A stretch of DNA of 64,000 nucleotides from Rariglobus hedericola (lineage in GTDB: Bacteria; Verrucomicrobiota; Verrucomicrobiia; Opitutales; Opitutaceae). The stretch covers positions 2,108,001 to 2,172,000 of the forward strand of contig NZ_VMBG01000001.1 of assembly GCF_007559335.1 (NCBI RefSeq), written 5' to 3'. The translations under genes were made by a program, and so were the position numbers. Numbering within the stretch: position 1 is the first letter of the stretch; each line of letters starts with the position of its first letter. Under the pieces are notes generated by a model. It saw nothing but the letters and a program-made list of their open reading frames with translations, was not told the origin of the DNA and ran no database searches. Shown in pieces: positions 47,967 to 50,000 of this stretch.

Positions 47967-50000
47967 ATGTCGCGTCTCAACTTCACCTTGGAAAAAACCG
48001 CCCCCGGCTCCCGTGCCCGCGCGGCCCGCTTCACGACGCTTCACGGCGAGGTGCTGACGCCCATCTTCATGCCCGTCGGCACCCAGGCCACCGTGAAGTC
48101 GCAGACCGCCGAGACACTCCTCGCCGCCGGCTCCAACGTCCTTCTCGCCAACACCTATCACCTGCTCCTCCGTCCCGGCCCCGAGGTGTTTAAAAAATTC
48201 GGCGGCATCCACCGCTTCATGAATTGGAATCGCCCCGTCCTCACGGACTCCGGCGGCTTCCAGATTTTTTCCCTCCCCAGCGAACGCCGCATGAACGAGG
48301 AGGGCGCCAAGTTTAAGAGCTACGTGGACGGCACCACGCTCCTGCTTTCGCCCGAGGTCAGCATCGAAACACAGAAGGCCATCGGCAGCGACATCATGAT
48401 GGTGCTCGACCAGTGCATCCCGTCCACCGCGCCCTACGACCAGGCCGAGGCCGCCATGCAGCTCACCCACCGCTGGGCCGTCCGCTCGCTCAACGCCCGC
48501 GGCGATTCCCCTCAGTCGATGTTCGGCATCGTCCAAGGCGCCTGCCACCCCGAGCTTCGCAAACAAAGCGCCGCGTTCCTCCGCGAACTCCCCTTCGACG
48601 GCCTCGCCATCGGCGGTCTCGCCGTCGGCGAAACCCACGCCGAGCGTTACGAGTTCACCGGCCTCGTCACCGAACACCTTCCTGAAAACCTCCCGCGCTA
48701 CCTCATGGGCGTCGGCACGCCCATCGACATCCTCGAAGCCGTCCACCGTGGCGTGGACATGTTCGACTGCATCATCCCGTCGCAGCTCGCCCAGCGCGGC
48801 ACTGTATTCACTTCTCACGGACGCCTCCACATGCAGCGCTCCGTCTATAAACTCCAGGACGGTCCCCTCGACGCCAACTGCGACTGCCACTGCTGCAAAC
48901 ACTACGAGCGCGGCTACCTTCACCACCTCGCCAAAACCAGCGAATACCTCGGCTGGCACCTGCTCGGCATCCACAACATTTCGTTTTATCACCGGCTCAT
49001 GCGCGAGATCCGCGCGCACATCCTCGCCGGCACGTTCGCCGAATACTACGAGAAGAAACGCCTCGAGCTCGTCCGCGTGGACGAAGACAGCCCGCCCGTC
49101 CCGCCCAAACAGACGCGTATCAAGCCCTCCAAAAAACTCGGCGACTACGAGATCGTCACCAACCCCGCCGGCACTTCGAGCATCAAGCAGATCAGCTCCG
49201 GCGAGGTCATGCATTCGGTTAGCGGCCCGAGCGAGGAATCCCAAAAACTCTACGTCGACCAGTCGTGTCTCGCCGTGCGTCTCCTCAAGCGCTCCGACGA
49301 CGACAACGAAGAGCTCGTCATCTGGGACGTCGGACTCGGCGCCGCGTCCAACGCCATGGCCGCCCTCCAGTGCTTCGAACGCGAACTCGCCGAGCGCGGC
49401 CCCGCCGTGCTCCGCCCGCTGCGCATCGTGAGTTTCGAGTGCGACCTGCACCCGCTCGCCCTCGCCACCAAGGACGCCGGCGCCTTCCCGCACCTGCGTC
49501 ACCGCGCGCCTTACGAAATTCTTAAAAACCATCGCTGGTCCCACGCCTCCGGCCTGCTCAACTGGGATCTCAACGTCGGCGATTTCCTCCAGTTCCTCGA
49601 ATCCTCCGCGGTCCCCGATCTCATCTACTTCGATCCGTTCTCCTCCAAAACGGACACCGGCCTGTGGACGCCCGAAGTATTCACCCGCATCTTTAACCAC
49701 TGTGCTCCGAAGTCCGCCGAGCTCTACACTTACGCCGCCGGCACCGGCGTGCGCGCCGCGATGCTCAACGCCGGTTTCTCCGTCGCCGAAGGCATGGGCA
49801 CCGGCCCGAAAGCCACGACCACCCTCGCCTTCACCCGCCTCGAAGCCGCGCAACACCACGCGCTCAAGCCCGTGCTTCTCGGCGAACCCTGGCTGGCCCG
49901 CTGGCGCCGCAGCGACAGCCAATACCCCAAATCTCTCCCCGGCGACGCCCGCCCCGCCTTCGCCGCCCGCATCGAAAGCCACCCCCAGTTCAAAGTCTGA
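47967..50000 (+). CDS. tgt: tRNA-guanine(34) transglycosylase fused to an MnmC-type methyltransferase domain
   Basis: About 677 residues from the ATG at 47967; the frame is open upstream without a plausible extension. Residues 1-375 are a complete bacterial [11 protein letters not shown] with general-base Asp94, [20 protein letters not shown] with nucleophile Asp264, and zinc ligands Cys305, Cys307, Cys310 and His336 in the standard C-x-C-x2-C-x25-H spacing. TGT inserts preQ1 for guanine 34 in GUN-anticodon tRNAs. After a linker (about 376-445) comes a SAM-dependent methyltransferase domain with [15 protein letters not shown] (451-465) and [17 protein letters not shown] (551-567), as in the MnmC methyltransferase (DUF752) family, which modifies U34. 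The fusion is in one intact frame. Confidence 0.9.

What the first reader, a model, noticed from the sequence alone, without database searches (positions are those of the whole stretch)
47967..50000. Intact fusion of Tgt with an MnmC-type methyltransferase domain
One frame encodes a complete TGT (all catalytic and zinc residues present) followed by a SAM methyltransferase with the DUF752/MnmC motif [17 protein letters not shown]. Both families act on tRNA position 34, but on different nucleosides: TGT on G34 (queuosine pathway) and MnmC on modified U34. A fused enzyme could couple the two, or the methyltransferase could act on a queuosine-pathway or wobble product not yet described. I do not know of a characterised example.
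Basis: partly seen in the sequence, partly recalled or inferred. Interest (0 to 1): 0.8.

Follow-up and report, generated by a model that had tools for sequence, protein, structure and literature searches.

The report
Second Tgt fused to wobble methyltransferase
One gene joins an extra copy of a tRNA base-swapping enzyme to a methyltransferase that resembles a wobble-base methylase; the pair recurs in many bacteria, usually beside the ordinary enzyme, and may make an undescribed tRNA wobble modification.

Summary
In detail: 47967-50000 (+) is one 677-aa frame, TGT (PF01702, 473 bits) plus an MnmC2-like methyltransferase (PF05430, 51.5 bits). It is no artefact: a genome scan reported 520 relatives of the methyltransferase domain, and 76 of the 80 loci kept carry both domains in one frame.

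The fused Tgt is a separate paralogue ("Tgt2"), monophyletic at 100/100. All 14 Tgt2 genomes among 288 of the phylum also hold a canonical Tgt. Tgt2 keeps the catalytic, base-pocket and zinc residues in 88 of 88 distinct sequences, but lost R286 (0 of 88; canonical 59 of 60) and mostly R289 (3 of 88; canonical 59 of 60). The methyltransferase is closest in fold to MnmC2 (Z 23.7) but forms its own deep clade.

Best reading: Tgt2 inserts preQ1, whose CH2-NH2 group is what MnmC2 methylates on nm5U34, and the fused domain N-methylates it at wobble position 34. Main rival: the domain makes mnm5U34 like a stand-alone MnmC2. Product and tRNA targets are inferred; nothing here shows them.

The parts
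47967..50000 (+). Tgt2-MT fusion gene, 677 aa plus stop
   Evidence: open frame; Pfam and NCBIfam; homologues in one frame in 76 of 80 loci
48012..49058 (+). TGT domain, residues 16-364
   Evidence: PF01702 473 bits; Foldseek best hits are Z. mobilis and T. maritima TGT
48765..48767 (+). codon of D267, equivalent of the Z. mobilis TGT nucleophile D280 (role: established knowledge)
   Evidence: D in 88 of 88 distinct Tgt2 and 59 of 60 canonical rows
48783..48797 (+). codons 273-277 (QLAQR), in place of the canonical RxxR (Z. mobilis R286/R289)
   Evidence: R286: 59 of 60 canonical, 0 of 88 Tgt2; R289: 59 of 60 canonical, 3 of 88 Tgt2
49059..49139 (+). linker, about residues 365-391; lowest confidence in the model (59 and 63 over residues 371-390)
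   Evidence: structure model; variable in the alignment
49140..49997 (+). MnmC2-like methyltransferase domain, residues 392-677
   Evidence: PF05430 over residues 509-621; NF033855 over 412-621; model of this part pLDDT 90.6, MnmC2 entries Z 19.2-23.7
49632..49634 (+). codon of D556, aligned with E. coli MnmC Asp178 (binds SAM)
   Evidence: alignment; invariant in 53 aligned sequences; role of Asp178 read in sections of PMC3648344

Best explanation
The gene encodes a bifunctional wobble-modification enzyme. The TGT half (Tgt2) is a second transglycosylase, kept beside the housekeeping Tgt, that swaps a tRNA guanine, most likely G34, for preQ1 (7-aminomethyl-7-deazaguanine). The MnmC2-like half then uses SAM to methylate the exocyclic primary amine, giving 7-(methylaminomethyl)-7-deazaguanosine (N-methyl-preQ1). 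This is the reaction MnmC2 performs on the CH2-NH2 group of nm5U34, moved to another base that carries the same group at the same tRNA position. Methylating the amine should keep QueA from finishing queuosine there, so the product would be an end product. The change from RxxR to QxxQR in the TGT half suggests a tRNA set or binding mode different from the housekeeping Tgt. Shown: architecture, conservation, paralogy, active-site residues, purifying selection in both halves, predicted fold. Inferred: preQ1 as the inserted base, the methyl acceptor, the order of steps, the tRNA targets.
For: Tgt2 keeps D102, D156, C158, Q203, G230, L231, V233, E235, M260, D280 and the zinc ligands in 88 of 88 distinct sequences; C158 and V233 are the residues that eukaryotic queuine enzymes replace (passage in PMC4425180). 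Each of the 14 Tgt2 genomes among 288 has a separate canonical Tgt, and so have 17 of 19 genomes reached through other loci: Tgt2 adds something rather than replacing the housekeeping enzyme. queA is over cut-off in 37 of 37 chosen phylum genomes and 19 of 19 others. QueF is over cut-off in 26 of 30, including 14 of 14 phylum Tgt2 genomes, so preQ1 is generally available. The methyltransferase keeps the MnmC2 residues D178, E101 and K236 and fold. TGT and methyltransferase share a frame in 76 of 80 loci; 3 of the other 4 lack the TGT at a contig end and 1 is frame-broken. dN/dS: TGT 0.01-0.11 in 10 of 10 pairs; intact methyltransferase 0.08-0.39 in 7 of 8 pairs, the eighth saturated. No operon partner shared across the loci.
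Against: No direct evidence for preQ1 methylation. In the methyltransferase tree, two enzyme types known to make mnm5U34 fall on both sides of the Tgt2 domain: E. coli/Y. pestis MnmC2 on its side (98/94), Aquifex MnmC2 on the other, so a retained MnmC2 activity is the simpler history. Three genomes of one genus keep Tgt2 with a truncated methyltransferase lacking the catalytic motif, and the remnant is itself constrained (dN/dS 0.07 and 0.10), so the fusion can serve without methylation. QueF misses its cut-off in 3 of 3 Riflebacteria genomes and in G299; G289 passes only narrowly (27.8 of 27.3 bits). MnmG is over cut-off in 27 of 30 genomes, so an nm5U substrate is possible. The RxxR change could reflect dimer or inter-domain contacts instead of tRNA choice.
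Confidence: 0.4

Rival explanations
1. The methyltransferase half is an ordinary MnmC2 that makes mnm5(s2)U34 from nm5(s2)U34 produced by MnmEG with ammonium; the TGT half supplies anticodon-loop binding and its own, separate G34 chemistry.
For: MnmC2 fold and SAM residues; known MnmC2 enzymes on both sides of the domain in the tree; mnmG in the own genome and over cut-off in 27 of 30 genomes; no other PF05430 domain in the own genome; Aquifex MnmC2 works without MnmC1 (passages citing Kitamura 2012); E. coli MnmEG can use ammonium to add the aminomethyl group (abstract of PMC3936742).
Against: MnmC1 over cut-off in 0 of 30 genomes and MnmL in 0 of 14 phylum Tgt2 genomes (not tested in the others). 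The domain is a separate deep clade (stem 1.87) and scores 58.7-84.7 bits against NF033855 in 4 others tested, versus 99-123 for 6 MnmL-fused MnmC2. It does not explain why a second, catalytically intact Tgt comes with it. G293 and G302 carry Tgt2 with no MnmG over cut-off, though they may be incomplete.
Confidence: 0.3
2. The methyltransferase acts on the free base preQ1, or on queuosine or epoxyqueuosine in tRNA, rather than on preQ1-tRNA.
For: Bacterial TGT accepts preQ1 with an added substituent (azido-propyl-preQ1; PMC9561289 passages), so a methylated free base could be inserted; QueA is present.
Against: The lysine listed as RNA-binding in MnmC2 (Ec K236, window K615) is conserved in at least 90% of 53 aligned sequences, which favours an RNA substrate; the amine of queuosine is secondary and hindered (chemical reasoning).
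Confidence: 0.14
3. Tgt2 is a scaffold or regulator; one or both halves have lost catalysis.
For: Truncated but constrained methyltransferase in 3 of 14 phylum genomes; Arg residues near-universal in canonical Tgt are replaced.
Against: Catalytic TGT residues invariant in 88 of 88 distinct Tgt2, SAM-site Asp invariant in 53 of 53, purifying selection in both halves.
Confidence: 0.08

Closest known systems
Bacterial tRNA-guanine(34) transglycosylase Tgt (TIGR00430, PF01702; Z. mobilis and T. maritima structures)
   Same: Fold, catalytic Asp pair, preQ1-type pocket, zinc site
   Different: Separate clade; R286/R289 replaced; fused methyltransferase; found beside a canonical Tgt in 14 of 14 phylum genomes
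MnmC2 / DUF752 (NF033855, PF05430; E. coli MnmC N-terminal half, Aquifex MnmC2)
   Same: Fold, SAM-binding Asp and Glu, RNA-binding Lys
   Different: Below the MnmC2 cut-off (73 of 136 bits), deep separate clade, partner is TGT instead of MnmC1
MnmL (TIGR01212 radical SAM) fused to MnmC2 in other Verrucomicrobiota
   Same: MnmC2-type domain at the C-terminus of another wobble-modification enzyme
   Different: Partner is thought to act on cmnm5U (recalled; PMC12548931 lists MnmC/MnmL together in a table, passage; NCBIfam names TIGR01212 MnmL/YtqA); no over-cut-off TIGR01212 in the 14 phylum Tgt2 genomes
Phage DNA 2'-deoxy-7-(methylaminomethyl)-7-deazaguanine (Cui et al. 2023; title seen in a reference list; content recalled, paper not held)
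   Same: The proposed modified base would be the same chemical group (recalled)
   Different: DNA in phages rather than tRNA; no phage relative of this methyltransferase found beyond one weak PHROG hit

Membership tests
Bacterial Tgt | Score over the TIGR00430 cut-off | tested here: met
   433 bits, cut-off 306.75
Bacterial Tgt | Catalytic Asp102/Asp280 and zinc ligands C318, C320, C323, H349 | tested here: met
   88 of 88 distinct Tgt2
Bacterial Tgt | preQ1-type pocket (C158, V233, L231, E235) | tested here: met
   88 of 88; meaning of C158 and V233 from a passage in PMC4425180
Bacterial Tgt | RxxR at 286/289, near-universal in the canonical Tgts examined | tested here: not met
   R286 0 of 88, R289 3 of 88; canonical 59 of 60 for both; 30 of 30 canonical
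Bacterial Tgt | Inserts preQ1 at G34 of GUN tRNAs | not testable with these tools
   needs biochemistry
MnmC2 | PF05430 gathering score | tested here: met
   51.5 bits, cut-off 22
MnmC2 | NF033855 equivalog-domain cut-off of 136 bits | tested here: not met
   73.3 bits; 4 other Tgt2 domains 58.7-84.7; 6 MnmL-fused MnmC2 also fall short at 99-123
MnmC2 | MnmC2 fold and SAM-binding Asp/Glu | tested here: met
   Z 23.7 to 3vyw, against 17.5 for the best non-MnmC2 chain; D556 and E491
MnmC2 | Methylates nm5U34 | not testable with these tools
   needs biochemistry
MnmC bifunctional enzyme | FAD domain MnmC1, fused or elsewhere in the genome | tested here: not met
   0 of 30 genomes over the TIGR03197 cut-off, weaker hits only; the fused partner is PF01702

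The most novel reading that the evidence does not exclude
A previously undescribed tRNA wobble nucleoside, N-methyl-preQ1, made by one self-contained and horizontally spread enzyme on a set of G34 tRNAs different from the four queuosine tRNAs, so that bacteria with Tgt2 carry two parallel 7-deazaguanine systems at position 34.
Probability: 0.18. Interest if true: 0.9.

Novelty: new variant of a known kind. Interest (0 to 1): 0.72.

Why it matters
If the reading holds, some bacteria make a wobble-base modification that is not among the tRNA nucleosides I can recall, and decode some codons with a tRNA chemistry nobody has measured. It would also show how a wobble-uridine methylase was re-aimed at a deazaguanine carrying the same aminomethyl group. 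The hypothesis can be tested directly: one gene, one predicted product, no known operon partner. Even under the rival, it is an unusual route to mnm5U34, and a warning that an automatic 'Tgt' annotation can hide two different enzymes.

Tried and rejected
Assembly error or chance frame: rejected by 76 of 80 loci in one frame. Some of the sequences gathered were identical over the TGT core (90 rows, 88 distinct), so the loci are not all independent.

Unrelated methyltransferase: rejected; MnmC2 models and structures come first.

Replacement of the housekeeping Tgt: rejected for the 14 phylum genomes and 17 of 19 others; the two with Tgt2 alone (G295, G303) may be incomplete, their completeness not being told.

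Phage origin: no PHROG for the whole protein, one weak hit for the domain (E 0.0028), none in 50,697 phage records, none confirmed in viral contigs.

Operon context: no neighbour shared across the loci; the widest cluster, a GTPase mostly upstream, was seen in 16 of 80 loci. Neighbours were called mechanically and several clusters were antisense frames, so this is a weak negative.

Literature: no Tgt-MnmC2 fusion in the listings, nor in passages of PMC3936742; the library lacks most subscription journals. Contacts of R286/R289 with the anticodon loop are recalled. The one passage found says that Arg286 lines a cavity connecting the two R34/P35 pockets of a twisted, probably non-productive dimer (PMC5395182); searches gave nothing more on these residues.

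Bias found and mended: the 61 canonical rows had been picked with a motif that includes the R286 position. I recounted without it (60 distinct canonical, 88 distinct Tgt2; one canonical row departs at the catalytic sites too, as a wrongly picked frame would) and quote, also free of that motif, gave 30 of 30 canonical and 0 of 14 Tgt2. On this check I also lowered the best reading from 0.42 to 0.40, raised the mnm5U rival from 0.27 to 0.30, and lowered the third reading and the novel case slightly, because the tree, with known MnmC2 on both sides, had been left out.

The genome scan kept 80 of 520 relatives and I examined those 80; whether the other 440 are fused is not known. Canonical rows are those recovered from loci fetched, not a random sample. 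Alignment A2 used 52 of the 55 loci that script 51 could trim. Organism names are MAG titles and some are plainly wrong (e.g. 'Klebsiella pneumoniae', L173). MnmE, MnmM and QueG were not tested.

Full report
WHAT IS THERE. Window 47967-50000 (+) is one open frame of 677 aa. Residues 16-364 match TGT (PF01702, 473 bits) and residues 509-621 match Methyltransf_30 (PF05430, 51.5 bits; cut-off 22). NCBIfam gives Tgt TIGR00430 at 433 bits and the MnmC2 domain at 73 bits, the latter under its cut-off of 136. AlphaFold2 models are confident: full length pLDDT 87.8, pTM 0.84; methyltransferase alone 90.6, pTM 0.91. The 50 PDB matches shown for the full model are TGTs. The methyltransferase model matches MnmC2 entries first (Z 19.2-23.7), ahead of spermidine synthases (17.5 and lower).

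NOT AN ARTEFACT. A genome-contig scan reported 520 relatives of the methyltransferase domain and kept 80 loci. In 76 of the 80 the TGT lies in the same frame; three others are cut by a contig end, and one (L143) has a broken frame, TGT pieces being found there. Both halves are under purifying selection: dN/dS 0.01-0.11 for TGT in 10 of 10 pairs, and 0.08-0.39 for intact methyltransferases in 7 of 8 pairs, the eighth being saturated.

A SECOND TGT. The own genome holds another Tgt at G000:C2:948949-950034, 43% identical. Of 288 genomes of the phylum, 14 (the window's own and 13 others at 65-79% identity) carry Tgt2; no other listed match exceeds 49% (the tail of that list, with weaker E-values, is not shown). 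In a TIGR00430 search of 37 chosen genomes, all 14 with Tgt2 also have a canonical Tgt, though in G072 and G098 it is cut by contig ends, and each of the 23 without Tgt2 has one Tgt. Among the other genomes of the 288, only G209 shows two matches. Through other loci, 17 of 19 genomes have both. In a tree of 71 rows, the 20 Tgt2 rows are one clade with 100/100 support and a stem of 1.04 changes per site; the tool warns that the long T. maritima branch joins it. Rows labelled Myxococcota, Binatota, Riflebacteria, Acidobacteriota and Bacteroidota sit among Opitutaceae-type Tgt2 rows, which suggests horizontal spread, but the labels come from MAG titles.

WHAT CHANGED IN TGT2. Against 60 distinct canonical rows, 88 distinct Tgt2 keep all catalytic, base-pocket and zinc positions examined, but have lost R286 (0 of 88; Q in 86) and mostly R289 (3 of 88); both are Arg in 59 of 60 canonical rows, the odd row also departing at catalytic sites. 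An earlier count without selection on this motif gave 30 of 30 canonical and 0 of 14 Tgt2. E157 is E in 59 of 60 canonical rows and Q in 84 of 88 Tgt2, but T. maritima Tgt has H there. One passage has Arg286 lining a cavity that connects the R34/P35 pockets of a twisted dimer (PMC5395182); contacts of these Arg with the anticodon loop are recalled from the 1Q2R structure and were not checked. C158 and V233, kept in Tgt2, are the residues that eukaryotic queuine enzymes replace (passage in PMC4425180).

THE METHYLTRANSFERASE HALF. It keeps the SAM-binding Asp and Glu and the RNA-binding Lys of MnmC2. It is a separate clade (98/98, stem 1.87) and scores lower against the MnmC2 model (58.7-84.7 bits in 4 tested) than 6 MnmL-fused MnmC2 domains (99-123). 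In the same tree E. coli and Y. pestis MnmC2 fall on its side (98/94), while Aquifex MnmC2 falls with the MnmL-fused and solo domains. Known MnmC2 activity thus lies on both sides, which speaks for the rival. It is the only PF05430 domain found in the own genome. Three genomes of one genus (G184, G187, G196) have lost the catalytic half but keep the TGT; the remnant is still constrained (dN/dS 0.07 and 0.10 in two pairs).

PATHWAY CONTEXT. queA over cut-off: 37 of 37 and 19 of 19. QueF: 26 of 30, all 20 phylum genomes tested, but none of three Riflebacteria nor G299, and G289 only narrowly. MnmG: 27 of 30, the misses being G293, G302 and G301, where it is cut by a contig end. MnmC1: 0 of 30. 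MnmL: 5 of 37, none of the 14 Tgt2 genomes. I did not test MnmE, MnmM or QueG.

HOW IT MOST LIKELY WORKS. MnmC2 methylates the primary amine of a CH2-NH2 group on the wobble base. preQ1, the base a bacterial Tgt inserts at G34, carries exactly such a group. A Tgt and an MnmC2-like domain in one chain therefore have a simple joint product: N-methyl-preQ1 at position 34. The second Tgt copy, its altered residues and the lack of a shared neighbour gene fit a self-contained enzyme that diverts some tRNAs from queuosine. Shown: domain identity, conservation, paralogy. Inferred: inserted base, methyl acceptor, tRNA set. I put this at 0.40, the nm5U34 rival at 0.30, free-base or queuosine methylation at 0.14 and loss of catalysis at 0.08.

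KNOWN OR NEW. Both domains are known; the pairing with a paralogous Tgt was not found in print, nor a methylated preQ1 in tRNA, within an open-licence library and from listings and passages only. It works like Tgt and like MnmC2, but I do not file the methyltransferase as MnmC2 (cut-off not met), and I treat Tgt2 as a distinct subfamily of Tgt.

Noticed in passing
L002 (own canonical Tgt) and canonical Tgts of the same order: The housekeeping Tgt has lost zinc-ligand residues in all 22 canonical rows from the window's own order and in 3 of 3 of family f11, while Tgt2 keeps them in 88 of 88. A zinc-free bacterial Tgt would be unusual (recalled).
   Followed up: partly
L017, L020, L022, L026, L030, L032: Other Verrucomicrobiota fuse the radical SAM enzyme MnmL (TIGR01212) to an MnmC2 domain, a likely functional equivalent of bifunctional MnmC.
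   Followed up: partly
L015, L016, L018: Three genomes of one genus keep Tgt2 with a shortened methyltransferase that lacks the DPF motif yet is still constrained.
   Followed up: partly
window 42664-43695 (-): A TrmO_N domain protein (tRNA methyltransferase O family), another tRNA-modification gene about 4 kb upstream.
   Followed up: no
G296, G297, G300: Riflebacteria genomes with both Tgts and queA but no QueF over cut-off: preQ1 source unknown.
   Followed up: no
G290:C16:168567-169646: A third Tgt-like match in the genome behind L131 (336 bits, one TGA inside), besides the canonical Tgt and Tgt2.
   Followed up: no
window 51029-52513 (+): A protein with two PPK2 polyphosphate kinase stretches.
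   Followed up: no
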